Shown here: positions 3,310 to 47,799 of the stretch, in pieces | Layout: each line of letters starts with the position of its first letter | Numbering within the stretch: the first letter of the stretch is position 1 | NCBI GenBank assembly: GCA_947623455.1 | Contig: OX392527.1 | Span: forward strand, 51,628,401-51,692,400 | DNA: 64,000 nucleotides | Source: Mimachlamys varia | Lineage: Eukaryota > Mollusca > Bivalvia > Pectinida > Pectinidae | Direction: 5' to 3' | Translations under genes and position numbers: made by a program | Notes under the pieces: model-generated | What the model saw: only the letters and a program-made list of their open reading frames with translations | What the model was told of the DNA's origin: nothing | Databases searched by the model: none

Positions 3310-3382
3310 GACCAGATAGCTCAATTGGTTGAGCGTCCGTCTAGAATTCGGAAGGTTTTGGGATCGAACCCCAAACTGGGCG
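3310..3382 (+). tRNA. tRNA-Ser(AGA)-like pseudogene or SINE head
   Basis: The D-arm box (TAGCTCAATTGGTTGAGC) and a T-arm box (GGGATCGAACCCC) are correctly spaced. The anticodon loop reads CTAGAAT, so the anticodon would be AGA. The acceptor stem has two mismatches, the anticodon stem ends in a T-T mismatch, and the first T-loop base is A, not T. It is probably a pseudogene or the tRNA-derived head of a SINE. A diverged partner lies in the right arm at 41,092-41,166. Confidence 0.5.
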
Positions 3383-5255: not shown

Positions 5256-5281
5256 TATCCTAAGAAGGCCAGCTGATTTGT

Positions 5282-10240: not shown

Positions 10241-10253
10241 GTATCCATCGTTT

Positions 10254-12769: not shown

Positions 12770-15700
12770 CGGTAACTACGGACACGGGTCGAGTTACTAC
12801 GGTCACGGGTCGGGCAACTATGAGCATGAGTAGGGTAACTACGGTCACGGGTCGGGTAACTATGGTCACGGGTCGAGCAACTACGAACATGAGTAGGGTA
12901 ACTACGGTCACGGGTCGGGTAACTACGGACAGGTGTAGGGTAACTACGGACACGGGTCGGGTAACTACGGACAGGTGTAGGGTAACTATGGTCACGGATC
13001 GGGTATCTATGGTATGCGTAGGGTAACAACGGACACGGGTCGGGTAACTACGGTCATGTGTAGGGTAACAACGGACACGGGTTGGGTTACTACGGACACG
13101 GGTCTGGTTTCTAGGACATGCGTAGGGTAACTACGGACATGTGTAGGGTAATTACGGACATGTGTATGGTAGCTACGGACAGGGGTCGGGTAACTACGGA
13201 TTTGCGTAGGGTAACCAAGGACTTCGGTCTGGTAACTACGGACATGTGTAGGGTAACTACGGACATGTGTAGGGTAACTACGGACAGGTGTAGGGTTACT
13301 TCGGACAGGTGTAGGGTAACTAAGGACATGTGTAGGGTAACTACGGACAGGTGTAGGGTTACTACGGACAGGTGTAGGGTAACTACGGACAGGTGTAGGG
13401 TTACTTCGGACAGGTGTAGGGTAACTAAGGACATGTGTAGGGTAACTACGGACAGGTGTAGGGTTACTACGGACAGGTGTAGGGTTACTACGGACAGGTG
13501 TAGGGTAACTACGGACATGTGCAGGGTAACAACGGACATGTGTAGGGTAACTACAGACATGTGTAGGGTAACTACGGACATGTGTAGGGTAACTCCGTAC
13601 ATGTGTAGGGTAACTACGGATATGTGTAGGGTAACTACAGACATGTGTAGGGTAACTACGGACATGTGAAGGGGAACTACGGACACGGGTTGGGTAACTA
13701 CGGTCATGTGTAGGGTAACAGCGGGCACGGGTTGGGTTACTACGGACACGGGTCTGGTTTCTAGGACATGCGTAGGGTAACAGCGGGCAGGGTTGGGTTA
13801 CTACGGACACGGGTCTGGTTTCTAGGACATGCGTAGGGTAACTACGGACATGCGTAGGGTAGCTACGGACATGTGTAGGGTAACTACGGTCATGTGTAGG
13901 ATAACCACGGACATGTGTAGGATAACTACGGATATGTGTATGGTAACTCCGTACATGCGTAGGGTAACTCCGGACAGGTGTAGGGTAACTACGGACATGT
14001 GTAAGGTAACTACGGACATGTGAAGGGTAACTACGGACATGTGTAGGGTAACTACGGACATTTGTAGGGTAACTTCGGACATGCGTAGGGTAACTCCGGA
14101 CATTTGTAGGGTAACTCCGGACATGTGTAGGGTAACTACGGATATGTGTAGGGTAACTACGGACAGGTGAAGGGTAACTACGGACAGGTGTAGGGTAACT
14201 ACGGACATGTGTAGGGTAACTACGGATATGTTTAGGGCAACTCCGTACATGTGTAGGGTAACTACGGACAGGTGTAGGGTAACTCCAGAAATGTGTAGGG
14301 TAACTACGGATATGTGTAGGGTACCCTTGGGTTGGGTTGGGTTACTACGGACACGGGTCTGGTTTCTAGGACATGCGTAGGGTAACTACGGACATGCGTA
14401 GGGTAGCTACGGACATGTGTAGGATAACTACGGACATGTGTAGGGTAACTAATGACAGGGGTCGGGTAACTACGGATTTGCGTAGGGTAACCAAGGACTT
14501 CGGTCAGGTAACTACGGACATGTGTAGCGTAACTACGGACAGGTGTAGGGTTACTTCGGACAGGGGTAGGGTAACTACGGACATGTGTAGGGTAACTCCG
14601 TACATGTGTAGGGTAACTACGCACAGGTGTAGGGTAACTCATTACTTGTGTAGGGTAACTACGGATATGTGTAGGGTAACTACGGTCATGTGTAAGGTAA
14701 CTACGGACACGTGTAGGGTAACTACGGATATGTGTAGGGTAACTCCGTACATGTGTAGGGTAACTACGGATATGTGTAGGGTAACTCCGGACATGTGTAG
14801 GGTAACTACGGATATGTGTAGGGTAACTACGGACATGTGTAGGGTAACTACGGACATGTGTAGGGTAACTCCGGACATGTGTAGGGTAACTACGGATATG
14901 TGTAGGGTAACTCCGGACAGGTTTAGGGTAACTACAGACATGTGTAGGGTAACTACGGACAGGTGTAGGGCAACTACGGTCATGTGAAGGGTAACTACGG
15001 ACGTGTGAAGGGGAACTACGGACACGGGTTGGGTAACTACGGTCATGTGTAGGGTAACAACGGACACAGGTTTGGTTCCTACGGACACGGGTCTGGTTTC
15101 TAGGACATTCGTAGGGTAACTACAGACATGCGTAGGGTAACTACGGACATGTGTAGGTAACTACGGACATGAGTAGGGTAACTACGGACATGTGAAGGGT
15201 AACTACGGACATGTGTAGGGTAACTACGGACATTTGTAGGGTAACTACGGACATGCGTAGGGTAACTACGGGCAGGGGTAGTGTAACTACGGACATGTGT
15301 AGGGTAACTCCGAAAATGTGTAGGGTAACTACGGATATGTGTGGGGTACCAACAGACATGCGTAGAGTAACTCCGGACATGTGTAGGGTAACTCCGGATA
15401 TGTGTAGGGTAACTACGGACATGTGTAGGGTAACTCCGGATATGTGTAGGGTAACTACGGATATGTGTAGGGTAACAACAGACATGCGTAGAGTAACTAC
15501 GGATATGTGAAGGGTAACTACGGACATGCGTAGAGTAACTACGGATATGTGTAGGGTAACTACATATATGTGTAGGGTAACTACGGACATGTGAAGAGTA
15601 ACTACGGACATGTGTAGGGTAACTACGGACATTTGTAGGGTAACTACAGACATTTGTAGGGTAACAACGGATATGTGTAGGGCAACTCCGGACATGTGTA

Positions 15701-18700
15701 GGGTAACTACGGATATGTGTAGGGTAACTACGGACAGATGTAGGGTAACTACGGACATGTGTAGGGTAACTACGGACATGTGTAGGGTTACTACGGATAT
15801 GTGTAGGGTAACTACGGATATTTGTAGGGTAACTCCGTACATGTGTAGGGTAACTACGGACATGTGTAGGGTAACTCCGGACATGTGTAGGGTAACTACG
15901 GATATGTGTAGGGTAACGACGGACAGGTGTAGGGTAACTACGGACATGTGTAGGGTAACTACGGACATGTGTAGGGTTACTACGGATATGTGTAGGGTAA
16001 CTACGGATATGTGTAGGGTAACTACGGACATGTGTAGGGTAACTCCGTACATGTGTAGGGTAACTACGGACATGTGTAGGGTAACTACGGATATGTGTAG
16101 GGTAACTCCGGACATGTATAGGGTAACTACGGATATGTGTAAGGTAACTCCGTACATGTGTAGGGTAACTACGGATATGTGTAGGTTAACTCCGGACATG
16201 TGTAGGGTAACTACGGATATGTGTAGGGTAACTACGGCCATGTGTAGGGTAACTACGGACATGTGTAGGGTTACTACGGATATCAGTAGGGTAACTACGG
16301 ACATGTGTAGGGTAACTACGGATATATGTAGGGTAACTCCGTACATGTGTAGGGTAACTACGGACATGTGTAGGATAACTACGAATATGTGTATGGTAAC
16401 TCCGTACATGCGTAGGGTAACTCCGGACATGTGTAGGGTAACTACAGACATGTGTAGGGTAACAAAGGACATGTGAAGGGGAACTACGGACACGGGTTGG
16501 GTAACTACGGTCATGTGTAGGGTAACAGCGGGCACGGGTTGGGTTACTACGGACACGGGTCTGGTTTCTAGGACATGCGTAGGGTAACTACGGACATGCG
16601 TAGGGTAACTACGGACATGCGTAGGGTAACTACGGACATGTGTAGGGTAACTACGGTCATGTGTAGGATAACTACGGACATGTGTAGGGTAACTACGGTC
16701 ATGTGTAGGATAACTACGGACATGTGTAAGGTAACTACGGTCATGTGTAGGATAACTACGGACATGCGTAGGGTAACTACGGACATTTGTAGGGTAACTT
16801 CGGACATGTGTAAGGTAACTACGGTCATGTGTAGGATAACTACGGACATGTGTAGGATAACTACGGATATGTGTATGGTAACTCCGTACATGCGTAGGGT
16901 AACTCCGGACAGGTGTAGGGTAACTACGGACATGTGTAAGGTAACTACGGACATGTGAAGGCTAACTACGGACATGTGTAGGGTAACTACGGACATTTGT
17001 AGGGTAACTTCGGACATGCGTAGGGTAACTCCGGACATTTGTAGGGTAACTCCGGACATGTGTAGGGTAACTACGGATATGTGTAGGGTAACTACGGACA
17101 GGTGAAGGGTAACTACGGACAGGTGTAGGGTAACTACGGACATGTGTAGGGTAACTACGGATATGTGTAGGGTACCCTTGGGTTGGGTTGGGTTACTACC
17201 GACACGGGTCTGGTTTCTAGGACATGCGTAGGGTAACTACGGACATGCGTAGGGTAGCTACGGACATGTGTAGGATAACTACGGACATGTGTAGGGTAAC
17301 TTAGGACAGGGGTCGGGTAACTACGGATTTGCGTAGGGTAACCAAGGACTTCGGTCAGGTAACTACGGACATGTGTAGCGTAACTACGGACAGGTGTAGG
17401 GTTACTTCGGACAGGTGTAGGGTAACTACGGACATGTGTAGGGTAACTCCGTACATGTGTAGGGTAACTACGCACATGTGTAGGGTAACACATTACTTGT
17501 GTAGGGTAACTACGGATATGTGTAGGGTAACTACGGTCATGTGTAAGGTAACTACGGACACGTGTAGGGTAACTACGGATATGTGTAAGGTAACTCCGTA
17601 CATGTGTAGGGTAACTACGGATATGTGTAGGGTAACTCCGGAGATGTGTAGGGTAACTACGGATATGTGTAGGGTAACTCCGGACATGTATAGGGTAACT
17701 ACGGATATGTGTAAGGTAACTCCGTACATGTGTAGGGTAACTACGGATATGTGTAGGGTAACTACGGACATGTGTAGGGTAACTACGGACACGTGTAGGG
17801 TTACTACGGATATCAGTAGGGTAACTACGGATATGTGTAGGGTATCTACGGATATATGTAGGGTAACTCCGTACATGTGTAGGGTAACTACGGACATGTG
17901 TAGGATAACTACGAATATGTGTATGGTAACTCCGTACATGCGTAGGGTAACTCCGGACATGTGTAGGGTAACTACAGACATGTGTAGGGTAACTACGGAC
18001 ATGTGAAGGGGAACTACGAACATGGGTTGGGTAACTACGGTCATGTGTAGGGTAACAGCGGGCACGGGTTGGGTTACTACGGACACGGGTCTGGTTTCTA
18101 GGACATGCGTAGGGTAACTACGGACATGCGTAGGGTAACTACGGACATGTGTAGGGTAACTACGGTCATGTGTAGGATAACTACGGACATGTGTAGGATA
18201 ACTACGGATATGTGTATGGTAACTCCGTACATGCGTAGGGTAACTCCGGACGGGTGTAGGGTAGCTACGGACATGTGTAAGGTAACTACGGACATGTGAA
18301 GGGTAACTACGGACATGTGTAGGGTAACTACGGACATTTGTAGGGTAACTTCGGACATGCGTAGGGTAACTCCAGACATTTGTAGGGTAACTCCGGACAT
18401 GTGTAGGGTAACTACGGATATGTGTAGGGTAACTACGGACAGGTGAAGGGTAATTACGGACAGGTGTAGGGTAACTACGGACATGTGTAGGGTAACTACG
18501 GACATGTGTAGGGTAACTACGGATATGTGTAGGGTACCCTTGGGTTGGGTTGGGTTACTACGGACACGGGTCTGGTTTCTAGGACATGCGTAGGGTAACT
18601 ACGGACATGCGTAGGGTAGCTACGGACATGTGTAGGATAACTACGGACATGTGTAGGGTAACTAAGGACAGGGGTCGGGTAACTACGGATTTGCGTAGGG

Positions 18701-21700
18701 TAACCAAGGACTTCGGTCAGGTAACTACGGACATTTGTAGCGTAACTACGGACAGGTGTAGGGTTACTTCGGACAGGTGTAGGGTAACTACGGACATGTG
18801 TAGGGTAACTCCGTACATGTGTAGGGTAACTACGCACATGTGTAGGGTAACACATTACTTGTGTAGGGTAACTACGGATATGTGTAGGGTAACTACGGTC
18901 ATGTGTAAGGTAACTACGGACACGTGTAGGGTAACTACGGATATGTGTAAGGTAACACCGTACATGTGTAGGGTAACTACGGATATGTGTAGGGTAAGTC
19001 CGGACATGTGTAGGGTAACTACGGATATGTGTAGGGTAACTCCGGACATGTATAGGGTAACTACGGATATGTGTAAGGTAACTCCGTACATGTGTAGGGT
19101 AACTACGGATATGTGTAGGTTAACTCCGGACATGTGTAGGGTAACTACGGATATGTGTAGGGTAACTACGGACATGTGTAGGGTAACTACGGACACGTGT
19201 AGGGTTACTACGGATATCAGTAGGGTAACTACGGATATGTGTAGGGTAACTACGGATATATGTAGGGTAACTCCGTACATGTGTAGGGTAACTACGGACA
19301 TGTGTAGGATAACTACGAATATGTGTATGGTAACTCCGTACATGCGTAGGGTAACTCCGGACATGTGTAGGGTAACTACAGACATGTGTAGGGTAACTAC
19401 GGACATGTGAAGGGGAACTACGGACACGGGTTGGGTAACTACGGTCATGTGTAGGGTAACAGCGGGCACGGGTTGGGTTACTACGGACACGGGTCTGGTT
19501 TCTAGGACATGCGTAGGGTAACTACGGACATGCGTAGGGTAACTACGGACATGTGTAGGGTAACTACGGTCATGTGTAGGATAACTACGGACATGTGCAG
19601 GATAACTACGGATATGTGTATGGTAACTCCGTACATGCGTAGGGTAACTCCGGACAGGTGTAGGGTAGCTACGGACATGTGTAAGGTAACTACGGACATG
19701 TGAAAGGGTAACTACGGACATGTGTAGGGTAACTACGGACATTTGTAGGGTAACTTCGGACATGCGTAGGGTAACTCCGGACATTTGTAGGGTAACTCCG
19801 GATATGTGTAGGGTAACTACGGATATGTGTAGGGTAACTACGGACAGGTGAAGGGTAATTACGGACAGGTGTAGGGTAACTACGAACATGTGTAGGGTAA
19901 CTACGGATATGTGTAGGGCAACTCCGTACATGTGTAGGGTAACTACGGACATGTGTAGGGTAACTCCGGAAATGTGTAGGGTAACTACGGATATGTGTAG
20001 GGTAACTACGGACAGGTGAAGGGTAATTACGGACAGGTGTAGGGTAACTACGAACATGTGTAGGGTAACTACGGACATGTGTAGGGTAACTACGGATATG
20101 TGTAGGGTACCCTTGGGTTGGGTTGGGTTACTACGGACACGGGTCTGGTTTCTAGGACATGCGTAGGGTAACTACGGACATGCGTAGGGTAGCTACGGAC
20201 ATGTGTAGGATAACTACGGACATGTGTAGGGTAACTAAGGACAGGGGTCGGGTAACTACGGATTTGCGTAAGGTAACCAAGGACTTCGGTCAGATAACTA
20301 CGGACATGTGTAGCGTAACTACGGACAGGTGTAGGGTTACTTCGGAATGGTGTAGGGTAACTACGGACATGTGTAGGGTAACTCCGTACATGTGTAGGGT
20401 AACTACGCACATGTGTAGGGTAACACATTACTTGTGTAGGGTAACTACGGATATGTGTAGGGTAACTACGGTCATGTGTAAGGTAACTACGGACACGTGT
20501 AGGGTAACTACGGATATGTGTAGGGTAACTCCGGACATGTGTAGGGTAACTACGGATATGTGTAGGGTAACTCCGGACATGTATAGGGTAACTACGGATA
20601 TGTGTTAAGGTAACTCCGTACATGTGTAGGGTAACTACGGATATGTGTAGGTTAACTCCGGATATGTGTAGGGTAACTACGGATATGTGTAGGGTAACAA
20701 CAGACATGTGTAGGGTAACTACGGATATGTGTAGGGTAACTACGGACACGTGTAGGGTTACTACGGATATCAGTAGGGTAACTACGGATATGTGTAGGGT
20801 AACTACGGATATATGTAGGGTAACTCCGTACATGTGTAGGGTAACTACGGACATGTGTAGGATAACTACGAATATGTGTATGGTAACTCCGTACATGCGT
20901 AGGGTAACTCCGGACATGTGTAGGGTAACTACAGACATGTGTAGGGTAACTACGGACATGTGAAGGGGAACTACGGACACGGGTTGGGTAACTACGGTCA
21001 TGTGTAGGGTAACAGCGGGCACGGGTTGGGTTACTACGGACACGGGTCTGGTTTCTAGGACATGCGTAAGGTAACTACGGACATGCGTAGGGTAACTACG
21101 GACATGTGTAGGGTAACTACGGTCATGTGTAGGATAACTACGGACATGTGCAGGATAACTACGGATATGTGTATGGTAACTCCGTACATGCGTAGGGTAA
21201 CTCCGGACAGGTGTAGGGTAGCTACGGACATGTGTAAGGTAACTACGGACATGTGAAGGGTAACTACGGACATGTGTAGGGTAACTACGGACATTTGTAG
21301 GGTAACTTCGGACATGCGTAGGGTAACTCCGGACATTTGTAGGGTAACTCCGGACATGTGTAGGGTAACTACGGATATGTGTAGGGTAACTACGGACAGG
21401 TGAAGGGTAATTACGGACAGGTGTAGGGTAACTACGAACATGTGTAGGGTAACTACGGATATGTGTAGGGCAACTCCGTACATGTGTAGGGTAACTACGG
21501 ACATGTGTAGGGTAACCAAGGACTTCGGTCAGGTAACTACGGACATGTGTAGCGTAACTACGGACAGGTGTAGGGTTACTTCGGACAGGTGTAGGGTAAC
21601 TACGGACATGTGTAGGGTAACTCCGTACATGTGTAGGGTAACTACGCACATGTGTAGGGTAACTCATTACTTGTGTAGGGTAACTACGGATATGTGTAGG

Positions 21701-23290
21701 GTAACTACGGTCATGTGTAAGGTAACTACGGACACGTGTAGGGTAACTACGGATATGTGTAAGGTAACTCCGTACATGTGTAGGGTAACTACGGATATGT
21801 GTAGGGTAACTCCGGACATGTGTAGGGTAACTACGGATATGTGTAGGGTAACTACGGACATGTGTAGGGTAACTACGGACATGTGTAGGGTAACTCCGTA
21901 CATGTGTAGGGTAACTACGGATATATGTAGGGTAACTCCGGACAGGTGTAGGGTAACTACAGACATGTGTAGGGTAACTACGGACAGGTGTAGGGCAACT
22001 ACGGTCATGTGAAGGGTAACTACGGACGTGTGAAGGGGAACTACGGACACGGGTTGGGTAACTACGGTCATGTGTAGGGTAACAACGGACACGGGTTTGG
22101 TTCCTACGGACACGGGTCTGGTTTCTAGGACATGCGTAGGGTAACTACAGACATGCGTAGGGTAACTACGGACATGTGTAGGTAACTACGGACATGAGTA
22201 GGGTAACTACGGACATGTGAAGGGTAACTACGGACATGTGTAGGGTAACTACGGACATTTGTAGGGTAACTACGGACATGCGTAGGGTAACTACGGGCAG
22301 GGGTAGTGTAACTACGGACATGTGTAGGGTAACTCCGAAAATGTGTAGGGTAACTACGGATATGTGTAGGGTACCAACAGACATGCGTAGAGTAACTCCG
22401 GACATGTGTAGGGTAACTCCGGATATGTGTAGGGTAACTACGGACATGTGTAGGGTAACTCCGGATATGTGTAGGGTAACTACGGATATGTGTAGGGTAA
22501 CAACAGACATGCGTAGAGTAACTCCGGATATGTGTAGGGTAACTACGGATATGTGAAGGGTAACTACGGACATGCGTAGAGTAACTACGGATATGTGTAG
22601 GGTAACTACATATATGTGTAGGGTAACAACGGACATGTGAAGGGTAACTACGGACATGTGTACGGTAACTACATATATGTGTAGGGTAACTACAGACATT
22701 TGTAGGGTAACCACGGATATGTGTAGGGTAACTCCGGACATGTGTAGGGTAACTACGGATATGTGTAGGGTAACTACGGACAGGTGTAGGGTAACTACGG
22801 ACATGTGTAGGGTAACTACGGACATGTGTAGGGTTACTACGGATATGTGTAGGGTAACTACGGATATGTGTAGGGTAACTCCGTACATGTGTAGGGTAAC
22901 TACGGACATGTGTAGGGTAACTCCGGACATGTGTAGGGTAACTACGGATATGTGTAGGGTAACGACGGACAGGTGTAGGGTAACTACGGTCATGTGTAGG
23001 GTAACTACGGACATGTGTAGGGTTACTACGGATATGTGTAGGGTAACTACGGATATGTGTAGGGTAACTACGGATATGTGTAGGGTAACTCCGTACATGT
23101 GTAGGGTAACTACGGTCATGTGTAGGGTAACTACGGACATGTGTAGGGTTACTACGGACAGGTGTAGGGTAACTACGGATATGTGTAGGGTAACTCCGTA
23201 CATGTGTAGGGTAACTACGGACATATGTAGGGTAACTACGGACATGCGTAGGGTTACTACGGACACGGGTCGGGTACTAACGGTCACGCA
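12770..23290. repeat. 10.5-kb array of a 21-bp minisatellite with higher-order structure
   Basis: About 500 copies of a 21-bp unit with core GTAACTACGGACATGTG. Units vary at fixed places: ACATG/ATATG/ACAGG, TACGG/TCCGG, and CGTAG/TGTAG. Blocks are organised into larger repeats marked by TTGGGTTGGGTTGGG (about 14,325; 17,172; 18,537; 20,113) and by CACGGGTCTGGTTTCTAGG (about 13,095; 13,750; 13,815; 14,355; 15,090; 16,555; 17,205; 18,085; 18,565; 19,490; 20,140; 21,040; 22,115). Both edges have the CACGGGTCGGG variant. Because 21 bases is seven codons and the unit lacks stops in several frames, frames of up to 525 codons appear on both strands (MCRVTTD forward, SVVTLHM and YPTHVRS reverse). I do not call these genes. 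Confidence 0.95.
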
Positions 23291-25544: not shown

Positions 25545-25614
25545 TGGTGTCAGATTGAGGCAAGTGCAGTTACTTCCTGGTAGTAAATAGGAACTACAAC
25601 ATCGATTTGTCCAG

Positions 25615-28600
25615 ATGGCAAAGTTCCAGGCCCCAGAGAAGTTCGATTTCAGCCGACCAAGCGGATGGAATGATTGGCGAACGAGATTTGCTCGCTACCG
25701 CACCGCAACAAAACTTCATAAGGATGAGGACGTTGTACAGATAAGTGCATTAATTTACGCAATGAGCAGTCAGGCAGAACATGTTTTTAAAACTTTAGTG
25801 TTCAATGTGGCCGGCGATGAAGATAAATATGACAAGGTCATTGAAAAGTTCGACAACTATTTCATTCCCAAACGAAATATAATCCACGAGAGGGCGCGGT
25901 TCCACCAGCGGAGTCAGGCCCCCGGCGAGTCTGTTGAGGGATTCGTGAGAGCATTATATGAAATAGCGGAACATTGCGATTTTACATCACAAGATGAGTT
26001 CATCAGAGATAGAGTAGTCATAGGAATTTCGGACAGACATATCTCAGAAAAACTACAAATGAAAGCTGATCTAACATTAGAAGGAGCTATTCAAACGGCA
26101 AGGCAGGCCGAGTTGGTGAAAACACAGATTAAGGACCAAGGAGGACAAAAACAACACGTGGAAGAGGTGAGAAAAGGGAGACAATTCAAAAAGAAAAACA
26201 ACCCAACTACACAACATCAAGCACAAGGTCAGTCATACAATAAACAGTCTCGCAGTGAAAAGGGTGCATGTTCACGGTGTGCTCGCAGCCACGGACAGGA
26301 AAAATGTCCAGCTATAGGGAGGCGCTGTAGATCTTGTAATAAGATGGATCACTTCGCGTGCTGCTGTCGGTCGAAAAAGGATATAAAGGAAGTGACGGAG
26401 CGGGAGGAATTCTTTCTCGGAGCAATAACCTCATGCTATGGTTATGAAAAGGCGTGGGAGGTGACACTGAAGGTAGGAAACACACCCGTAACATTCAAGA
26501 TTGATACTGGGGCGGACACTACTGTTATCTCTCGGGAGACATATAACCAACTTAACCAACGTCCAGCTTTGAGTCCAGTCAGTTCTATACTTCAAGGTCC
26601 AGGAGGAGGAGTCCTTCCATCAGAAGGTAAATTTGACTGTCAAGTTAAGTACAAGGGGAGACAATTCAAATTACCTATATGTGTGATCGGTGGAGCCAGC
26701 TCCAGCAACCTGCTAGGAAGGAGTGCTGCACACCAAATGGGACTGGTAGTGAGAGTTGATGCAGTTACCGACGATTTATTTGGACCAACCGGACTACTGT
26801 CGTGTGAACCAGTCAAAATAACATTAAAGGATCACGCAGTTCCATATTGCATTAGTGCTTCAAGGCGGGTGCCATTCCCACTACTCGAAAAGGTGAAAAC
26901 CGAGCTCAGTCGAATGGAACAGGATGGCATCATAGAAAACGTGACAGAGCCAACAGACTGGTGCGCTCCCATGGTTCCTGTGGTGAAAAAGACCGGGAAA
27001 ATTAGGATTTGTGTGGACCTTAAACGGTTAAATGAAGCTGTAAAGAGGGAACACTTCATGCTACCAACCCTGGATGATATAGCACCAAAGCTAGTGGGCG
27101 AGAAGGTATTCTCCAAGTTAGATGCCAGTAGCGGGTTTTATCAGATACCCCTGGATGTAAATAGCAGCAGGCTCACTACATTCATCACCCCATTTGGACG
27201 CTTCGCCTTTCGCAGGGTTCCGTTCGGAATAACCTCAGCCCCTGAAATATTTCAGCGCAAGATGTCAGAGCTGTTGACTGGTCTGGAAGGAGTCGAGGCT
27301 ATTATAGATGACACCTTGATCTATGGAAAGTCTAAGGAGGAACATGACGAGCGTCTTGCCAAAGTCCTAGACAGGATTCGAGCATCAGGCCTTAAACTTA
27401 ACAAGGATAAGTGCGAGTTTGGGAAGTCCAAACTCGAGTACTTTGGCCATGTCGTTGGTGGGGACGGTATAAGTGTCAACCCAGAGCGTGTTGCAGCAAT
27501 CAAAGGACTAGAAGCACCTAAAGATGTAACTGAGCTACGAAGGGTCATAGGCATGATCAATTACCTTGGAAGATTCATTCCGGATTTGTCTACCATCATG
27601 CGACCCATGACAGATCTCCTGAAATCTGACATTGTTTGGCAATGGATGCCAAGACAACAGCAGGCATTTGACAGGGTAAAAGGAATGTTGACCAACACCC
27701 CTACTTTGGCATTTTACTCTCCAAGTAAACCAACCATAGTCAGTGCCGACGCAAGTAGCTACGGTCTGGGAGGGGCCATGTTTCAGATGGACGGAGACGA
27801 GATTAAACCGGTGGCTTACTGTTCTCGCACCTTGTCACCAGCAGAGTCAAGGTACGCACAGATCGAAAAAGAGTGCCTCGCATCGGTCTGGGCATGCGAA
27901 AAGTTTGAACGATATTTGGTCGGACTTGAATCTTTTAAACTTCTCACAGATCACAAGCCCTTAGTTCCTCTCATCAACACACAGGATCTTGACCGGATGC
28001 CCCTGAGGTGTCAGAGGCTACTCATGCGTTTGAGGAGATTTACTCCAATCGCTGAACACGTACCTGGGAAACTGCTCGTTGTTCCAGATACCCTATCGAG
28101 GAGCCCCCTCAAGCTAAAGGAGGTCCCGATTGACGAGGATGTGGAGGTGTTCGTGGACTCCGTGGAGTCCATCAGGCCTATATCAGATAGGAAATTGGCT
28201 AGGATTCGACAAGCTTCGTTGGAAGATCCTCACCTTCAGAAAGCCCTATGTCTCACAAAGACAGGGTGGCCGGATCGAGAAACCTCCCTAGAGGAGATGG
28301 ATGGTTACTTTGCAGTACGTAACGAACTGTCAGTCTCGGATGATTTACTGCTCTACCGACAAAGGATTGTGATACCGAGTACATTACGTGAGGAAACCCT
28401 GGATACACTCCATGAAGGGCACCTAGGTATAGCCAAGTGCCGCGAGCGTGCAGCTACATGTGTGTGGTGTCCAAACATAGGAAAGGATCTCAAGGAAATA
28501 GTGGAAAGCTGTAGTTTCTGTCAGGAGCACAGACCAACACAGAGGAAGGAACCCCTAAAGGTTACCCCTCTACCGGCACGACCTTGGCAAAAGATCTCAG

Positions 28601-29595
28601 CAGATCTTTGTGACTTCAAGAATGACAGTTATTTAGTGGTTATTGACTACTATTCGAGGTACCTAGAAATTGCCCATCTCTCTAATATAACCAGTGGTCA
28701 GGTTATAGGAAAGTTGAAGAACATCTTTGCTCGTTTCGGAGTTCCCGAAGAGTTGGTCTCCGACAATGGGACACAATTCGCGTCACAAGAATTCAACGAA
28801 TTCGCAGAGAAGTACAACTTCATACAAACTTTCACTAGTCCGCACTACCCTCAGGCAAATGGGCAGGCGGAGAGCGGAGTAAAGATTGCTAAACGCATAC
28901 TCGCTCAACATGACATATTCCTAGCACTTATGGCTTATCGAGCCACGCCTATCGCGTCAACAGGAGCTAGCCCAAGTCAGCTGATTATGGGTCGACAGAT
29001 AAGGACAACCGTACCGGTCGCGCCCAAGACGCTTAACCCGAAGTGGCCGAGCAAGAAGTCGGTGCAGCAGCGTGACCACAGTTATAAGGAACGATACAAA
29101 TCACAGTATGATCGTCACAATGCAGTGCGCTCACTTCCTGAGTTGGAACCTGGAGACACTGTTAGACTCAAACTCGACAAACAAAAACTCTGGAGTTCGG
29201 AAGGACGAGTGGAGAGAGTCGATCACAAGAGACGGTCGTATCAGGTCAGAACACCCCGAGGTGTATATTGGAGAAATCGTAGACATTTGCAGTTGACAGA
29301 ACGCAAGACCCAGTCTAGTGACAATTCTGACTTAACAGGAATCATTAGAGAGCCTGTGTTCACAGACACACCGATTACTCAAAAGGTGTCGGACAATGTA
29401 GTTCTCGAGAACGTCCCACCTGGGAATGTGACAGATAGTCCGCCACTTGGGAAAAGTCAGAACAGTGATGAGTCTCGCCAAGACTCTGATCGCGTACAGG
29501 ATGCAAATCTAACGCGTAGTGACACTACAACTATTACCACGCGTGTAGGCAGACGTGTAGTAAAGCCAAAGCACTTTGATGACTTTGTTGAGTGA
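25615..29595 (+). CDS. Gag-Pol polyprotein of the Ty3-type element
   Basis: A single frame of 1,326 residues. Gag occupies about 1-215 and is followed by two CCHC knuckles at about 219-252 (CSRCARSHGQEKC and CRSCNKMDHFACC). The protease motif is FKIDTGADTTVIS near 296. Reverse transcriptase spans about 410-620, with CVDLKRLNE near 466 and the catalytic IIDD at 563-566. RNase H shows SADASSYGLGG near 709 and LLTDHKPL further on. Integrase has HEGH near 933 with CSFC near 966, then the catalytic acids in SADLCDF (~996), SDNGTQF (~1049) and GQAESGV (~1085). All catalytic residues are present and no frameshift separates Gag from Pol. It encodes what the element needs to copy and insert itself, so it may be active. 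Confidence 0.95.
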   Translation: MAKFQAPEKFDFSRPSGWNDWRTRFARYRTATKLHKDEDVVQISALIYAMSSQAEHVFKTLVFNVAGDEDKYDKVIEKFDNYFIPKRNIIHERARFHQRSQAPGESVEGFVRALYEIAEHCDFTSQDEFIRDRVVIGISDRHISEKLQMKADLTLEGAIQTARQAELVKTQIKDQGGQKQHVEEVRKGRQFKKKNNPTTQHQAQGQSYNKQSRSEKGACSRCARSHGQEKCPAIGRRCRSCNKMDHFACCCRSKKDIKEVTEREEFFLGAITSCYGYEKAWEVTLKVGNTPVTFKIDTGADTTVISRETYNQLNQRPALSPVSSILQGPGGGVLPSEGKFDCQVKYKGRQFKLPICVIGGASSSNLLGRSAAHQMGLVVRVDAVTDDLFGPTGLLSCEPVKITLKDHAVPYCISASRRVPFPLLEKVKTELSRMEQDGIIENVTEPTDWCAPMVPVVKKTGKIRICVDLKRLNEAVKREHFMLPTLDDIAPKLVGEKVFSKLDASSGFYQIPLDVNSSRLTTFITPFGRFAFRRVPFGITSAPEIFQRKMSELLTGLEGVEAIIDDTLIYGKSKEEHDERLAKVLDRIRASGLKLNKDKCEFGKSKLEYFGHVVGGDGISVNPERVAAIKGLEAPKDVTELRRVIGMINYLGRFIPDLSTIMRPMTDLLKSDIVWQWMPRQQQAFDRVKGMLTNTPTLAFYSPSKPTIVSADASSYGLGGAMFQMDGDEIKPVAYCSRTLSPAESRYAQIEKECLASVWACEKFERYLVGLESFKLLTDHKPLVPLINTQDLDRMPLRCQRLLMRLRRFTPIAEHVPGKLLVVPDTLSRSPLKLKEVPIDEDVEVFVDSVESIRPISDRKLARIRQASLEDPHLQKALCLTKTGWPDRETSLEEMDGYFAVRNELSVSDDLLLYRQRIVIPSTLREETLDTLHEGHLGIAKCRERAATCVWCPNIGKDLKEIVESCSFCQEHRPTQRKEPLKVTPLPARPWQKISADLCDFKNDSYLVVIDYYSRYLEIAHLSNITSGQVIGKLKNIFARFGVPEELVSDNGTQFASQEFNEFAEKYNFIQTFTSPHYPQANGQAESGVKIAKRILAQHDIFLALMAYRATPIASTGASPSQLIMGRQIRTTVPVAPKTLNPKWPSKKSVQQRDHSYKERYKSQYDRHNAVRSLPELEPGDTVRLKLDKQKLWSSEGRVERVDHKRRSYQVRTPRGVYWRNRRHLQLTERKTQSSDNSDLTGIIREPVFTDTPITQKVSDNVVLENVPPGNVTDSPPLGKSQNSDESRQDSDRVQDANLTRSDTTTITTRVGRRVVKPKHFDDFVE

Positions 29596-33084: not shown

Positions 33085-34290
33085 ACGTGTCACAATATTC
33101 CTTTATGAGGGAAACATGTATTAAGATATTCCTATTAGATAGACCTGTATCACGATATTACTGTATGAGGGAAACATGTATCACGATATTACTGTATGAG
33201 GGAGACATCTATCACGATATTGCTGTATAAGGGAAACTTTTATCACGATATTACTGTATGAGGGAGACATTTATCACGATATTACTGTATGAGGGAAACA
33301 TGTATCACGATATTACTGTATGAGGAAAACATGTATCACGATATTACTGTATCGGGGAAACATGTATCACGATATTACTGTATGAGGGAGACATTTATCA
33401 CGATATTACTGTATGAGGGAGACATTTATCACGATATTACTGTATGAGGGAAACTTTTATCACGATATTACTGTATGAAGGAGACATTTATCACGATATT
33501 ACTGTATGAGGGAAACATGTGTCATGATATTACTGTATGAGGGAAAGATGTATCACGATATTACTGTATGAGGGAAAGATGTATCACGATATTACTGTAT
33601 GAGGGAGACATTTATCACCATATTACTGTATGAGGGAGACATTTATCACGATATTACTGTATTAGGGAAACATTTATCAAGATATTACTGTATGAGGGAA
33701 ACATGTATCACGATATTACTGTATGAGGGAAACTTTTATCACGATATTACTGTATGAAGGGAGACATTTATCACGATATTACTGTATGAGGGAAACATGT
33801 ATCACGATATTACTGTATGAGGGAAACATGTATCACGATAATACTGTATGAGGGAGACATTTATCACGATATTACTGTATGAGGGAAACATTTATCACGA
33901 TATTACTGTATGAGGGAAACATTTATCAAGATATAACTGTATGGGGGAAACATTTATCACGATATTACTGTATGGGGGAAACATTTATCACGATATTACT
34001 GTATGGGGGTGAACATTTATCACGATATTACTGTATGGGGGTGAACATTTATCACGATATTACGGTATGGGGGAAACATTTATCACGATATTACTGTATG
34101 GGGGGAAACATTTATCACGATATTACTGTATGAGGGAAACATTTATCACGATATTACTGTATGAGGGAAACATTTATCACGATATTACTGTATGAGGGAA
34201 ACATGTATCATTGTATCCTTATTTGAGAGATATATGTTTCACGATATTCCTATATGAGGGTAACATGTATCATGATATCCTTCCTATATC
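33085..34290. repeat. 31-bp minisatellite array, right arm
   Basis: About 38 copies of the 31-bp unit seen on the opposite strand (CGATATTACTGTATGAGGGA). CGATATTACTG recurs every 31 bases. A run near 33,930-34,090 shares a GTATGGGGG variant, which shows local homogenisation after the arms separated. Confidence 0.9.
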
Positions 34291-35568: not shown

Positions 35569-37692
35569 TCATTTGAGGTTTGCCAATGTCTTTGTCCATG
35601 CCTCGGCGAATTGAATGTCGTATTGTTCTAAGTATTGTCTTGTGTATAACTGCTTGTACAACTCTACTATGTCAGATTGATTTCCAGCTTTTTCAGAGGA
35701 AAGAAAATCCACCAGTTGCTTACTTTTTGTATATAAGTCTAACTCTGCGTTAAAATCCCTTAAAATGTTATGATGGTTTCTGTCTTGGGTCACATAAGGT
35801 GGAGAAAATCCTAAACGAAGACCATTTCTGTGAAAAAAATATTGGGCTATGTAACTTCTCCAAATATCACTAACGCGACCATTTACACTGATAGGCAATG
35901 CCATATAAGGAAATGCATGTGCGAACCATAAAGTTGCTTGGGCATTGAATGGTGCGTATGTGTTAACAGGTAAAACAAATGGCATACGAGATTTTCGTTT
36001 TGCTTGAAAGTTAAAAGGGGTGTCACGTGTCATTCTATAAATAGCATCCACGTCTGGTTGCTGATTTGCTAATGACTGTACTACGCCCAGTGTAAAAGGT
36101 GTATTTGAAGTGCAAGGTGTTAGTGTGGTTGTTTTGTTTTTAATATCTTGCAGGGGAAACCCTCTGGGCCAAGTCAAAGATTCTGTTACTCCGAAATAAG
36201 GATAAGGGTTAAGAAGATTCTTCCGTGAAGCGTTTTGACAATCAGTGACATACGGAAATGGTAAAACGTGACGGAAATCATCTATGTCTATAATTCCATG
36301 ATTATCATCATCGAAATCCCAAATGTATTTTGCTTTGTGGTGTATAGCATACATATATCCTATATTTTTTCTTCCGAAGTGGTTAAATGGTATAACTTCC
36401 GATAATAACGGATAAAGGACGTTTTGTTCTTTTTCAGAAAGATATTTGATTCTTTTATTAGTATTCATATCCGTTCCTAGTTCAGGCATATACGTTCCCT
36501 CTAGTGGCGTTTTTCTATCGGCTACTATCACTAAGCACCAATCGGAAAGAGTTGCTACGTGTTTAATAGCTTTCGAAGGAGAAAATATCGTTGTGACAAC
36601 AGCCCAGTTTTCGCAGTCCTGCATTTTGTCTTTGGTTGCAAAATATGTGTGGTTATTGGTTAACGGCTGTGGTAACTGTGTCCTTACAATTTCGCCTGAA
36701 AACAATGACCCAGTCACGGCACCAATCATATCGTTTGGAGAGACAGTTGAAGGTTTGCTATATTCGTGAAGTTTGTTCATTACTTCTACATTGGATTTAT
36801 GGTTTATAATATATTTTGAACAAAACCCTGGTTTTATGTTCTTCAACATTGTTGCTTCCATTCTTTTTCCCATACTCACAATCTTTCCGTTATCTGCAAC
36901 ATAATCTATGTCGTTATAGACTGACAGCCAGTGTACCAAAGAAGTGTCGGCAAAGTTTGTTTCCGTTAAGTCCATACTGCGATTGCATTTCCGTTCACCA
37001 CAATATTCACGCTTCGCGATTCGTTCTACCAAGTTTTTACCAATAACAACGAATAATTCGTCTATATAGTACTGGTGATTATTTAGTTTTTCTGTCGCAC
37101 CAAAGTGTGTCCATCCATAGTACAGTGTCTTTGATTTGCGTTGATCAAGCCTTTGGAATACCTGAGGGACACAAAGGAAAATATCGTCATCTAATTTGGC
37201 TGTGAGTAAAGCATCAGGGTATCGATTGTGTACGTATTTCAACCACCGGTGTAGTTTTTCTCCAAATTTCACCGCTCGTCCATGACTGGTCACGTTCAGG
37301 AATAAGATATCCTTATATTTCTTGTTTTCTGATATTGTCTCATTTGTCGGTAAATCAAGGAGAAATCTGTAGGCAATTCTAAAAGGAAGCTCATCTCGCA
37401 AAAGTTGCATAGAGGATATCCATGTTGATCGTTGTGCATTTCTGTAGTCAACATGCGTATCTGCCGATAATATTCCTTATACGAAACGGGGTCTGTGATC
37501 TATGTTAGGAATATTTGTAGGTTCGACGAAGGTCTGCCCCTGGGTTATATCGTTTCTCAAAGTGATCCCGTATGAGGAGACAGATATGAAGTAAACGGTT
37601 GCGATGATGGCAAATATAAAACATATCCCCAGAATCTTCGAAACACTGTCCCTTCTACAGATCGAAGCAAACATCCGTTTCATGTTGTACAA
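35569..37692 (-). pseudogene. Second GT31-DUF288 gene copy with one nonsense codon
   Basis: This copy aligns end to end with the gene at 5,282-7,408 and has no frameshift over 707 codons. Codon 72, TTA (Leu) in the other copy, is TAA here (37,477-37,479). The first ATG is TTG and the ATG of codon 4 (37,681-37,683) is kept. The C-terminus reads TLANLK, not TLANLNK, because a deletion of about 110 bp removed the original stop and 3' flank. Both DDD motifs and the KTP, GRKNIGY and AIHHKAKYIWD motifs are intact. If translated from the next ATG (37,410) it would be a 613-residue protein without membrane anchor. It is either a young pseudogene, a soluble variant, or an assembly error at one base. 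Confidence 0.8.
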
Positions 37693-43230: not shown

Positions 43231-43539
43231 AAATCAGAAAATCTTTCAATTTGAAATGTATTATAGTTATGTCACTTAACATAATAAGGATGATGAGATG
43301 GGTTTAAAAATTGCATTTCATTATAAAATATTGTTTTTAAAGTATGTTAGATTTGCGTAATAGTATACAAATGTTAGATTTGCATAATATTATACAAATG
43401 TTTTATTTCAAATCTTACTTTCAGTATCTGCATATTTGTATAGCAAATCTGCTGTGTAATTGTCAGTCTGCAATTTGAAATTCCTCAATAAGTGATAATG
43501 TACATGTAAACCAAATAACAGTACGAAAAACATTTGCGA

Positions 43540-45010
43540 ACATCCAGCTTGATAATATTACTGGTGCGTTTAATATTACCGACTACCGACCTGTCAGTCT
43601 TACTAGTATCATTGTTAAAACCATGGAAAAACGTATACGTGATAGTATAATGCAACATATACAGATAAATAATTTATTCAATGAGAATCAGTTTGCATTT
43701 CTTGCTGGAAGATCAACAACGTTAACACTTCAAATGCTTATTGTCTTAGATCATTGGACTCGTATGTTGGATACTGGAGGAGAAATTGATGTTGTTTACA
43801 TGGATTTTATGAAAGTTTTTGATAAGGTACCCCATCGTAGTCTGATACACAAACTTTATAATTATGGCATTAAGCCGAAAAACTGTCAAATGGATAGAAA
43901 ACTTCCTAAGTGATAGACATCAAAAAGTAGTGATAAACGGATCTGCATCAAAATTACAGAATGTACTTAGCGGAATTCCCGAGGGTAGTGTATTGGGACC
44001 AATATTGTTTGTTCTTTATATTAATGACATGCCAGATAACGCATTGTCGTCATGTCCTCTATTCGCAGATGATACCAAAGTATACAGTAAGATTAGAAAT
44101 AATGAGGATATGGAAATTCTACAGGCATATTTAAATAATCTTCAAAAGTGGTCTGATGATTGGCTTTTAAAATTACATTCAAATAAATGCAAGGTACTGC
44201 AACTTAAGGGATCACCAAACAATAACCGATGTTATCGTCTCACCAGTCAAAATGGAGAAGTCGTACTGGAAAATATCGTCAGTGCAAAAAGGATCTAGGT
44301 GTAACGGTGGATGCCAACCTCGATTTCCGAACCCACATCCAAAACTCAATAAATAAAGCAAATTCAATTCTTGGAGTCATCAGAAGATCCTTTACCAATT
44401 TGGATGAGACAATGTTTAGACAGCTTTTCAAAGCACTGGTTAGACCACACCTGGAATATGCAGTCATTGTGTGGAGTCCGTACAAACTCAGAGACATTCA
44501 AATGATAGAAAATGTACAAAGGAGGGCTACTTAGCTTCTTCCAGGTTTTAATTAAAAGAACTTTCATATGAAGAACAAGTGAATAAGCTGAAACTTCCAA
44601 AAGTCAAACACCGCAGGACCAGGGGAGATTTGATAAACGTTTTTAAAATTGTGAACGAATAATTCGTTGAGAGGGTTACATCTAGCATAATTATTTTAGA
44701 TAATAGCGAAAGAACTCGAGGTCATAGATTTAAGTTGTACAAACAACGATGCAATACAAAACTAAGAAAAAACTTGTTCAGTTTTAGGGTAGTAGATGCC
44801 TGGAACAAGCTACCAGATTATGTCGTAAATGCGAAAACTATTAGAGATTTTGAGATATTGCTATATGATCATAATAAGGACAATATCTATAATGATAACT
44901 GATAAAAATTTTTAATGAGTATATATATTTCATGTATAACTTTGCCAGTGGCATTTTATTTTGTATATATATATTGTGATATGGACTTTTTTCCATTAAA
45001 TTCCATTAAA
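43540..45010 (+). pseudogene. CR1/jockey-group LINE, 5'-truncated and frameshifted
   Basis: The fragment starts inside the reverse transcriptase (ITGAFNITDYRPVSLTS), continues with NENQFAFLAGRSTTL and VYMDFMKVFDKVPH, shifts frame near 43,880, and resumes with GIPEGSVLGPILFVLYINDM and the catalytic FADDTKVY. A second shift near 44,290 is followed by DLGVTVDANLDFRTHIQ and ALVRPHLEYAVIVWSP, then LSYEEQVNKLKLPKVKHRR. The end lacks poly(A) and carries short CCATTAAAT repeats (about 44,990-45,010), as in CR1/L2-type elements. No endonuclease is present. It is dead. Confidence 0.85.
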
Positions 45011-45232
45011 TCCATTAAAATATTTTTTTAAATGTCACTCAGCTTTATTTTAATTCTTAAATCCAGTGTCTGTATATTTGTACAACGAAAGTGCCTTGAA
45101 ATATGCAATCTGAATGTACATTAAAATTGAGTCAAAAATTGTCTTCCTTCGTCATTTGTGTTTCCGTGTTACTTATAAATGAAATTACATGTATAAGGAA
45201 TAAACACACAAAACAATGTGATCATCCCTTAA

Positions 45233-45964: not shown

Positions 45965-46237
45965 CGAGTTCGGTAAAATCTGATGCCGAAAAAAGAAAAA
46001 TGGCGACGTGATGAAATTAAAACCTTTCACGATATTTTAACCGTGTACATTAGAAAGCTGAGATTATTTTTTCTGCGCAAACTACGTTTGCAAATATGGG
46101 GTATGCTCGATCTCGCTGTATCATTTGTTTTCGTCAAAAAAATTAAAGGAAAAATTTGATATTTTCAAAATGGTGGCCAGTCAAAAGTATTTTCATGGTT
46201 TTTGAGCTTATTCAGGTAGTTGAAATGAGAGAAAAAT

Positions 46238-46388
46238 ACTCTTTCATGACCAGAGGTGTAAGATAGGGAAATTCCACCCTCGGGATTTTCAAATTTGGCA
46301 AAACCCTCGGCAAAGCCTCGGGTTTTACCAAATTTGAAAACCCCTCGGGTGGAATTTCCCTATCTTACACCTCTGGTCATGAAAGAGT
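46238..46388. mobile_element. Near-perfect 150-bp hairpin (foldback MITE)
   Basis: ACTCTTTCATGACCAGAGGT at 46,238 is mirrored by ACCTCTGGTCATGAAAGAGT ending at 46,388. The stem continues through GTAAGATAGGGAAATTCCAC and CCTCGGG with almost no mismatch, then a less regular centre. The arms are about 65 bases each. There is no ORF. It lies 170 bp before the hammerhead array. An RNA copy would form a long double strand. Confidence 0.8.
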
Positions 46389-46709
46389 CTTATATTCTAA
46401 CATTGGTAAAGCCAAGTGCAATACCAGTGCACTTGACTGTTTACTTAAGTGTATTCCTCTGCATTTTTAAGTCTCACCTAAAGGCAGTAAGTTTTAAATA
46501 TTTCCGTGTTAAGGTACTGCATGCCATACTATACTATCATCAATCTTATACATTACTGATATACACATTTTCGTAGTACACGATTTGAAATTATACAGAA
46601 CAAGTTTAATTTTACTTCAAAATTCATACATTAAAGGAGTTTTACGCACCTTAAACTTTCTGCTTCTACATTAATTTAGAGATTTTGGATTCCCACCTTT
46701 TGGCCCCCA

Positions 46710-46753
46710 GCATCACTGAAGAGTCCTAGGAGGACGAAACAGCTGTATGGTGC
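46710..46753 (+). ncRNA. Hammerhead ribozyme (type I), copy 1
   Basis: Stem I is GCATCA with TGGTGC (one G-U pair). The core CTGAAGA fits CUGANGA. Stem II is GTCCT-AGG-AGGAC. GAA follows, then a tiny self-complementary stem III (ACAGCTGT) and the cleavage triplet GTA, with the cut expected after A46747. All invariant core bases are present. The very short stem III suggests efficient cleavage only when two copies pair, as in other metazoan type I hammerheads. Confidence 0.88.
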
Positions 46754-47088
46754 AGTTTAATTTTTTTTCGGCATGCTGTGTCTGTTACTAAATTTGGAAG
46801 GTGCAGCACATGTGTGTGATACGTCATCTTTAATGAAAGGGGGTGGCACACTTTGCTGTGTTTTTTTTTTAGTCCCCGAGGTTTGCTGGAGCCTCCATAG
46901 CCACAGCTAATCGCATTTGAGTAGTGGCACGGTACATTATATACACATTTTCGTAGTACACGATTTGAAATTACACAGAACTAGTTTAATTTTACTTCTA
47001 AATTCATACATTAAAGGGGTTTTACGCACATTAAACCTCCTGCTTCTACATTTGTTTAGAAATTTTGGATTCCCACTTTTGGCCCCTA

Positions 47089-47132
47089 GCATCACTGAAG
47101 AGTCCTAGGAGGACGAAACAGCTGTATGGTGC
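47089..47132 (+). ncRNA. Hammerhead ribozyme (type I), copy 2
   Basis: Identical in core and stems to copy 1: GCATCA, CTGAAGA, GTCCTAGGAGGAC, GAA, ACAGCTGT, A, TGGTGC. The cut is expected after A47126. Confidence 0.88.
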
Positions 47133-47467
47133 AGTTTAATTCGTTTTTTCGGCATGCTGTGTCTGTTACTAAATTTGGAAGGTGCAGCACATTGGTGTGA
47201 TACGTCATCTTTAATGAAAGAGGATGGCACACTCTGCTGGTGGATTTTTTAGTCCCCGAGGTTTGCTGGAGCCTCCATAGCCACAGTTAATCTCATTTGA
47301 GTAGTGGCACGGTACATTATATACACATTTTCGCAGTACACAATTTGAAATTACACAGAACTAGTTTAATTTTACTTCTAAATTCATACATTAAAGGGGT
47401 TTTACGCACATTAAACCTCCTGCTTCTACATTTGTTTAGAAATTTTGGATTCCCACTTTGGCCCCTA

Positions 47468-47511
47468 GCATCACTGAAGAGTCCTAGGAGGACGAAACAG
47501 CTGTATGGTGC
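47468..47511 (+). ncRNA. Hammerhead ribozyme (type I), copy 3
   Basis: Identical to copy 2 over the 44 bases of the ribozyme. The cut is expected after A47505. The array ends about 80 bases downstream. Confidence 0.88.
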
Positions 47512-47799
47512 AGTTTAATTCGTTTTTTCGGCATGCTGTGTCTGTTACTAAATTTGGAAGGTGCAGCACATGGGTGTGTTACGTCATCCTTACTTGCATG
47601 TTCTTATCAGTGATAGTTAACTATACTTTTATTGTCATTGTTATCAATTTTTTATCCTTATGTTTACAGTATCTTTCTGTGAAATGTTCGTAACTATTTT
47701 GTTCATTATAGTCAAATCTTCGTACACAGATTTCATTTCAAAACTAATAAACATGGGAATTGTTCAATAAATGTAACAGCATAAAATTTGCAAGCTCCG

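What the first reader, a model, noticed from the sequence alone, without database searches (positions are those of the whole stretch)
46559..47592. Hammerhead-ribozyme tandem repeat: a candidate retrozyme
Three complete type I hammerheads sit in identical positions of a 379-bp tandem repeat. Every invariant base is present, stem I pairs perfectly (GCATCA with TGGTGC), and the predicted cuts are exactly one unit apart. A transcript would release 379-nt linear RNAs that could circularise. Seen directly: repeats, core and pairing. Known: animal genomes contain small retrozymes of this design. Inferred: that this array is transcribed and mobile. The self-complementary stem III (ACAGCTGT) predicts dimer-dependent cleavage.
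Basis: partly seen in the sequence, partly recalled or inferred. Interest (0 to 1): 0.9.

Follow-up and report, generated by a model that had tools for sequence, protein, structure and literature searches.

The report
Self-cutting RNA jumping-gene family
The repeat is one copy of a very numerous animal jumping gene whose RNA would carry a self-cutting ribozyme, and the way its copies end in the genome gives a clue to how such elements are copied back into DNA.

Summary
The array is real: 2.7 units of 379 bp with three identical type I hammerheads (Rfam RF00163, E 1.5e-5 each, 31.6 bits, under the curated cut-off of 34), predicted cuts 379 apart. It is one copy of a dispersed family: 11,028 hammerhead motifs within 3 mismatches in the same 975-Mb genome, none with the reversed control. 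It fits the known animal non-LTR retrozymes.

What I did not find described: copies share a 3' end. In loci chosen by body or hammerhead, 59 of 70 measurable copies end at one place, 83-86 nt downstream of the ribozyme cut, not at the cut. 5' ends are scattered and most copies are shorter than one unit. I saw no poly-A and no target duplication signal; the last ~36 bp is tandemly multiplied at 52 listed places. Of 84 tail-chosen copies, 62 run through the cleavage junction, so their template was uncut or religated. An anole Penelope-like element starts reverse transcription internally 82-92 nt past its hammerhead cut and has a 30-40-bp 'tail'. I therefore propose Penelope-like mobilisation of circular or concatemeric retrozyme RNA. 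Penelope-like RT/GIY-YIG frames exist in this genome; shared sequence, or a Penelope hammerhead, was not shown. Cleavage, transcription and circles are untested.

The parts
46559..47591 (+). Retrozyme copy: 5'-truncated first unit, two further full units by cut-to-cut count, ending at the family's common 3' end
   Evidence: array, 46559-47592; boundaries against the unit; common 3' end
46710..46753 (+). Type I hammerhead 1, predicted cut after 46747
47089..47132 (+). Type I hammerhead 2, predicted cut after 47126
47468..47511 (+). Type I hammerhead 3, predicted cut after 47505
47127..47505 (+). One 379-nt cut-to-cut unit (the predicted monomer RNA)
   Evidence: sequence; cleavage itself untested
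47558..47591 (+). 3'-terminal tail: the module of about 36 bp found tandemly multiplied elsewhere; proposed reverse-transcription start at its 3' end (47588-47591)
   Evidence: the start site is inferred from copy ends

Best explanation
The array is a copy of a high-copy animal non-LTR retrozyme. Multi-unit transcripts are cut by their type I hammerheads into 379-nt RNAs that are religated into circles, sometimes dimeric (inferred from the family; not shown here). A reverse transcriptase supplied in trans starts at a fixed internal site, CAUC|UUU, 83-86 nt downstream of the cleavage/ligation junction, primed at an AT-rich target. It runs 5'-ward, mostly through the junction, for a variable distance, usually less than one turn and sometimes several. 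This leaves insertions with a common 3' end, scattered 5' ends and occasional in-phase tandem arrays. The enzyme is most likely that of a Penelope-like element (PLE): internal initiation, the spacing from hammerhead cut to start site and a tail of about 36 bp match the one PLE measured in vitro. Shown: common 3' end, scattered 5' ends, junction read-through in most tail-chosen copies, tail tandems, mild AT bias of flanks, no target-duplication signal. Inferred: transcription, cleavage, circles, trans RT, PLE identity. My odds: retrozyme 0.93; template with an intact junction and a fixed internal start 0.8; PLE as the helper 0.5.
For: Rfam match and exact 379 spacing. 11,028 near motifs, control 0. 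Common 3' end: 59 of 70 measurable copies in loci chosen by body or hammerhead end at model position 374-379 of 380; over all loci 147 of 163, but 100 of those loci were chosen by the tail itself. 5' starts of 84 tail-chosen copies are spread over the unit and 62 of 84 run more than 8 nt through the junction. Tail-to-tail junctions: 114 matches, control 0; the 100 listed lie at 52 places on 17 contigs, spacing mostly 36 bp. Alternating B-A-B-A-B array L004, as a dimeric circle would give. PLE geometry: start 111-118 nt into the ORF, cut at 26 by the paper (85-92 nt) or at 29 by my placing (82-89 nt); tail 30-40 bp, AT-rich targets. PLE RT and GIY-YIG matches in frames of equal length (741 or 825 aa) at 12 places.
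Against: No sequence similarity of the cut-to-start stretch to the anole PLE (59 of 500 shuffles score as high). No hammerhead in the 441 bases read upstream of one PLE RT. No copies ending at a second, tail-less site, and no inverted tails at 5' flanks, both of which PLEs can have. Several bdelloid PLE insertions have 8-10-bp target duplications; here no signal. Array L008 has units only 86.4-86.7% alike, no closer than units of different loci (89.0%), so its units need not come from one template. The hammerhead is not more conserved than the rest (0.915 against 0.936); 31 of 58 tail-chosen copies keep all 11 core bases checked.
Confidence: 0.55

Rival explanations
1. A SINE-like element mobilised by a LINE whose RT recognises the 3' tail (CR1/L2-like LINEs often lack target duplications and can add short 3' repeats; recalled). 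The template is an uncut multi-unit transcript and circles are not needed.
For: Common 3' end, 5' truncation and no target-duplication signal are also LINE-like. 3' tandem repeats of the tail resemble 3' repeats of such LINEs. The window itself holds a LINE-like RT.
Against: No LINE with this 3' end was seen: in 351 kb of window and fetched loci the motif GTTACGTCATCTT (up to 2 mismatches) outside retrozyme tails gives 24 rows, of which several are truncated retrozymes and the rest look like the chance level. LINE 3' ends were not surveyed genome-wide. Multi-unit arrays and the B-A-B-A-B order are harder without circles.
Confidence: 0.3
2. A satellite DNA spread by DNA-level events (unequal crossing-over, extrachromosomal circles, segmental duplication); the hammerhead is incidental.
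For: Tandem arrays exist; L004 order and the 45-bp hammerhead array L059 could come from unequal crossing-over.
Against: Most tail-chosen copies are single and truncated from the 5' side only, with one 3' end and unrelated flanks at many places. DNA circles would give random ends on both sides.
Confidence: 0.08
3. The template is the linear ribozyme product (5'-OH at the cut), without religation.
For: Cleavage at 379-nt spacing predicts such RNAs.
Against: Copies end 83-86 nt past the cut, not at it, and 62 of 84 run through the junction. An apparent excess of 5' ends beside the cut against one reference unit (11 of 75 in 8 nt; 0 of 5000 uniform draws reach it) was not clear on the family profile (494 of 10,000 uniform and 1,013 of 10,000 smoothed draws reach it).
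Confidence: 0.04

Closest known systems
Metazoan non-LTR retrozymes (Cervera and de la Pena 2020, PMC7229834), above all the mussel Mytilus galloprovincialis family
   Same: Type I hammerhead in low-GC repeats of 350-390 bp, thousands of motifs, no coding frame, co-existing PLEs
   Different: Here about 11,000 motifs against about 5,000 in the mussel; a common 3' end 83-86 nt past the cut and a tail module, which I did not see described; RNA evidence exists for the mussel and not here
Penelope-like elements, anole Poseidon PAc (PMC11167929)
   Same: Hammerhead upstream of an internal RT start site at 82-92 nt, 30-40-bp tail, AT-rich target, partial tandems
   Different: PLEs code for RT and GIY-YIG; minimal hammerhead; no sequence similarity found in the stretch compared
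Newt and axolotl satellite retrozymes (PMC7229834)
   Same: 330-350-bp repeats, type I hammerhead with weak stem III, act as dimers
   Different: Dimer action here is only predicted
Plant LTR retrozymes (PMC4918200, listing only)
   Same: Non-autonomous, hammerhead, circular RNA
   Different: Type III hammerheads in LTRs, 4-bp target duplications (as told in PMC7229834)

Membership tests
Metazoan non-LTR retrozyme | Type I hammerhead with intact core | tested here: met
   RF00163 over its full length, E 1.5e-5, but below the gathering score
Metazoan non-LTR retrozyme | Short tandem repeats (150-450 bp), one hammerhead per unit | tested here: met
   379 bp, 2.7 units; but most tail-chosen copies are sub-unit
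Metazoan non-LTR retrozyme | G+C below 50% | tested here: met
   0.393
Metazoan non-LTR retrozyme | No coding capacity | tested here: met
   No stop-to-stop frame of 110 aa or more overlaps the array; shorter frames not examined
Metazoan non-LTR retrozyme | Many dispersed copies | tested here: met
   11,028 near motifs; copies on many contigs
Metazoan non-LTR retrozyme | No LTR, PBS or PPT | not tested
   No search for these motifs was made
Metazoan non-LTR retrozyme | Target duplications, when present, longer than 4 bp | tested here: inconclusive
   No signal: 9 of 55 with 6 nt or more against 61 of 644 same-locus controls
Metazoan non-LTR retrozyme | Self-cleavage and circular RNA in tissue | not testable with these tools
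   Needs transcription assay and RNA-seq
PLE-mobilised element | RT start 82-92 nt past the hammerhead cut, seen as genomic 3' ends | tested here: met
   83-86 nt, 59 of 70; comparison rests on one PLE
PLE-mobilised element | 30-40-bp tail unit next to the start site | tested here: met
   Tandems of about 36 bp at 52 listed places; not as tail-less ends
PLE-mobilised element | PLE with RT and GIY-YIG in the same genome | tested here: met
   56 GIY-YIG and 124 RT matches, lower bounds
PLE-mobilised element | A PLE here with the same hammerhead or tail | tested here: inconclusive
   Only 441 bases upstream of one PLE RT could be read, no hammerhead there; the other PLE stretches were 5'-truncated copies (L160) or interior RT (L161)

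The most novel reading that the evidence does not exclude
Genomic 3' ends record the reverse-transcription start site of an animal retrozyme, 83-86 nt past the ribozyme cut, with a tail module of about 36 bp. It would be the first sequence signature tying retrozymes to Penelope-like machinery, the hammerhead-to-start spacing being the cassette that autonomous and non-autonomous elements share.
Probability: 0.5. Interest if true: 0.75.

Novelty: new member of a known kind. Interest (0 to 1): 0.58.

Why it matters
Which enzyme copies animal retrozymes back into DNA is open: a 2020 review says that their repeats show no conserved motif that would reveal the helper (PMC7761336, passages). A common 3' end, a measured spacing to the ribozyme cut and a tail module offer such a motif and make the Penelope idea directly testable in vitro and by mapping copy ends in other animals.

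Tried and rejected
Tried and dropped. (1) A pile-up of 5' ends at stem III and the cut: 11 of 75 against a single reference unit, not clear on the profile. (2) Inverted tails at 5' flanks: best score 23 of 145 flanks, best shuffled 20. (3) Target duplications: 9 of 55 copies with 6 nt or more against 154 of 2750 mispaired and 61 of 644 same-locus controls; the first control alone would suggest a small excess. (4) Extra conservation of the hammerhead: none. (5) Sequence kinship of this stretch with the anole PLE: none. (6) A 27-mer of the hammerhead in viral contigs: 0. (7) Pfam PF26215, recalled as linked to PLEs: not in the library. (8) Literature; no listed paper that I looked into describes a common 3' end or RT start site for animal retrozymes. 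Only CC0, CC BY and CC BY-SA papers are held, supplements could not be read, and most listed papers I did not open. Seen of papers: PMC7229834, outline with abstract, part 1 of 6 of the text, sections 13-17 and passages; PMC11167929, parts 1-3 of 4; PMC7761336 and PMC3846280, passages only; all others, listing only. (9) A count of unit-to-unit junctions and a mismatch-tolerant tail count did not complete.

Rows dropped before counts: L024-L026 (the window's own array again, as L001) and L040 (near-duplicate of L039); 10 of 65 copies (no clean 3' end, too near a stretch end, or array-internal); 5 of 80; 4 of 88 tail-chosen copies cut at the 5' side (L143, L147, L148, L156), which biases lengths downward; 13 of 176 copies cut at the 3' side. 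Tail-chosen loci are 80 of the 100 listed of 527 matches and the first 20 of the 100 listed of 1,171, not random draws: listings run in contig order, and places already held, repeats of one cluster and some of contig 4 were left out. One search covers the 100 listed of 114 matches. In one search one badly written pattern matched nothing; only the second is used.

Full report
WHAT IS THERE. The array 46559-47592 is confirmed by Tandem Repeats Finder (2.7 copies, 95% matches). Three identical hammerheads lie at 46710-46753, 47089-47132 and 47468-47511; predicted cuts follow 46747, 47126 and 47505. Rfam Hammerhead_1 covers each from end to end with 31.6 bits, E 1.5e-5. That is below Rfam's curated 34 bits, so the gathering search of the whole window lists no hammerhead.

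ONE COPY OF A LARGE DISPERSED FAMILY. The window lies in contig 1 of a 975-Mb assembly of 71 contigs. From contig sizes I guess a bivalve; this was not tested. The 35-nt hammerhead motif has 545 exact matches and 11,028 with up to 3 mismatches; the reversed control has none. These are motifs, not copies: arrays hold several. Two versions of the 31-nt 3' tail have 527 and 1,171 exact matches, control 0. Twenty-five full units are on average 88.8% identical, range 82.3-97.4%.

HOW THE COPIES END. I fetched 58 loci chosen by body or hammerhead, one with a hammerhead array and 100 chosen by the 31-nt tail, and built a profile from 25 full units. The fair test of the 3' end is the first set: of 70 copies there whose 3' side was not cut off, 59 end at model position 374-379 of 380; 6 of the other 11 end at 361-372, and 5 elsewhere. 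Over all sets it is 147 of 163, helped by the choice of loci. In letters the end is TTACGTCATC followed mostly by one to three T, then unrelated DNA. The predicted cut most often falls at model position 294|295, and by the window's own letters the end lies 83-86 nt past the cut. The fair test of the 5' end is the tail-chosen set: 84 measurable starts are spread over the unit, 81 of the 84 copies are no longer than one unit, and 62 of 84 run more than 8 nt past the cleavage junction. Four more were cut at the 5' side and are longer than 429 nt, and 12 continue 3'-ward beyond the stretch, mostly as array-internal tails (11 in the first 80 loci). So arrays are a minority, but their share is only roughly known. 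No poly-A follows the ends printed.

Target duplications give no signal: matched stretches of 6 nt or more in 9 of 55 copies, against 154 of 2750 mispaired and 61 of 644 same-locus controls. Flanks are mildly AT-biased next to the ends: A at the third base past the profile end in 84 of 145, T at -3 and -2 in 70 and 69 of 142.

THE TAIL IS A MODULE. A pattern for tail joined to tail has 114 matches, control 0. The 100 listed fall into 52 places on 17 contigs, 35 with a single junction and up to nine in one place; spacing is most often 36 bp, also 34, 38 and 42. L138 shows one body followed by six tails. TTT(A/G)A occurs at the start site and again about 36 nt before it, so slipping back of the young cDNA to the start site is a simple way to make these tandems (inference from the sequence).

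ARRAYS. In six arrays (L001, L002, L003, L005, L006, L007) neighbouring full units are 92.5-97.4% identical, against 89.0% between loci, as copies of one template would be; in L008 they are only 86.4-86.7%, which shows no such link. In L004 five units alternate B-A-B-A-B: A-A 98.4%, B-B 94.5-96.8%, A-B 85.4-88.0%. A dimeric circle copied more than twice explains it; unequal crossing-over does too. A putative dimeric circle was a residual product in vitro for the axolotl retrozyme (PMC7229834 section 16).

MECHANISM. If the template were the linear product of the ribozyme, the 3' ends would sit at the cut. They sit 83-86 nt later and most tail-chosen copies cross the junction, so the template was a circle, a concatemer or an uncut transcript. 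In the anole Penelope-like element PAc the hammerhead cut is 26 bp into the ORF, reverse transcription begins inside the RNA at +111-118, cleavage prefers AT-rich DNA, two adjacent start sites delimit a 30-40-bp tail seen at genomic ends, and hammerhead cleavage is not needed for insertion in vitro (PMC11167929). The spacing is 85-92 nt by the paper's numbers and 82-89 by my placing of the cut on the template RNA printed there. Spacing, internal start, tail length and AT preference agree with the retrozyme ends. In a bdelloid rotifer, PLE pLTRs sufficed to integrate a foreign gene in trans, and PLE insertions there may lack a target duplication, though several have 8-10 bp (PMC3846280, passages). 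PLEs exist in this genome: 124 RT matches to the L160 frame and 56 GIY-YIG matches, both lower bounds; at 12 places the two are listed close together on one strand in frames of equal length, 741 or 825 aa. The L160 frame itself matches Pfam RVT_1 with E 1.8e-6 but 28.2 bits, just under the cut-off of 29.6. Cervera and de la Pena proposed PLEs as helpers from co-occurrence and shared hammerheads (PMC7229834), and a later review by that group says that no conserved motif in the repeats reveals the helper (PMC7761336). The common 3' end offers such a motif.

LIMITS. The comparison rests on one PLE. Transcription, cleavage and circles are untested. The hammerhead is not more conserved than the rest of the unit among tail-chosen copies, and 31 of 58 of them keep all 11 core bases checked: expected if most copies are dead on arrival, but no support for function. 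A hint of 5' ends piling up at the ribozyme was not clear on the family profile.

VERDICT. A retrozyme by membership, with an unusually readable record of how its copies begin and end. The Penelope reading is about even odds and worth a bench test.

Noticed in passing
L059 (G000 C3:14921300-14922700), about 360-1370: A 45-bp tandem array of bare hammerheads inside a degenerate retrozyme copy; 21 matches keep the core pattern. Its transcript would fall into 45-nt pieces.
   Followed up: partly
L004 (G000 C13:5910953-5915006): Retrozyme array whose units alternate B-A-B-A-B, a two-unit higher-order repeat.
   Followed up: partly
G000 contig ends, e.g. C16:13686-20642, C17:23627-68103, C4:17923-31234, C1:65800251-65805788: Penelope-like RT plus GIY-YIG frames (741-825 aa) lie near contig ends, in tandem on C16 and C17. 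L162 just upstream of one RT holds the end of another open frame that looks to me like an SGNH esterase (recalled motif, no Pfam hit).
   Followed up: partly
L160 (G000 C5:48159000-48160500): Two identical, 5'-truncated Penelope-like RT frames head to head.
   Followed up: no
window 5264-7408 (+) and 35569-37476 (-): Near-identical glycosyltransferase-like ORFs (Pfam STELLO and Galactosyl_T for the first) in inverted order, each beside a 31-bp tandem array (9274-10246; 33090-34278), on either side of a 10.5-kb satellite of 21-bp units (12771-23276) and a gag-pol-like ORF (25591-29595).
   Followed up: no
window about 46220-46400: A foldback (inverted repeat) element directly upstream of the retrozyme array, seen by eye.
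   Followed up: no
window 43479-44298 and 44991-45019: LINE-like RT in two overlapping frames (Pfam RVT_1), with three copies of TTCCATTAAA further downstream that may be its 3' repeat.
   Followed up: no
window 3310-3382 (+): tRNA-like match, 41.7 bits.
   Followed up: no
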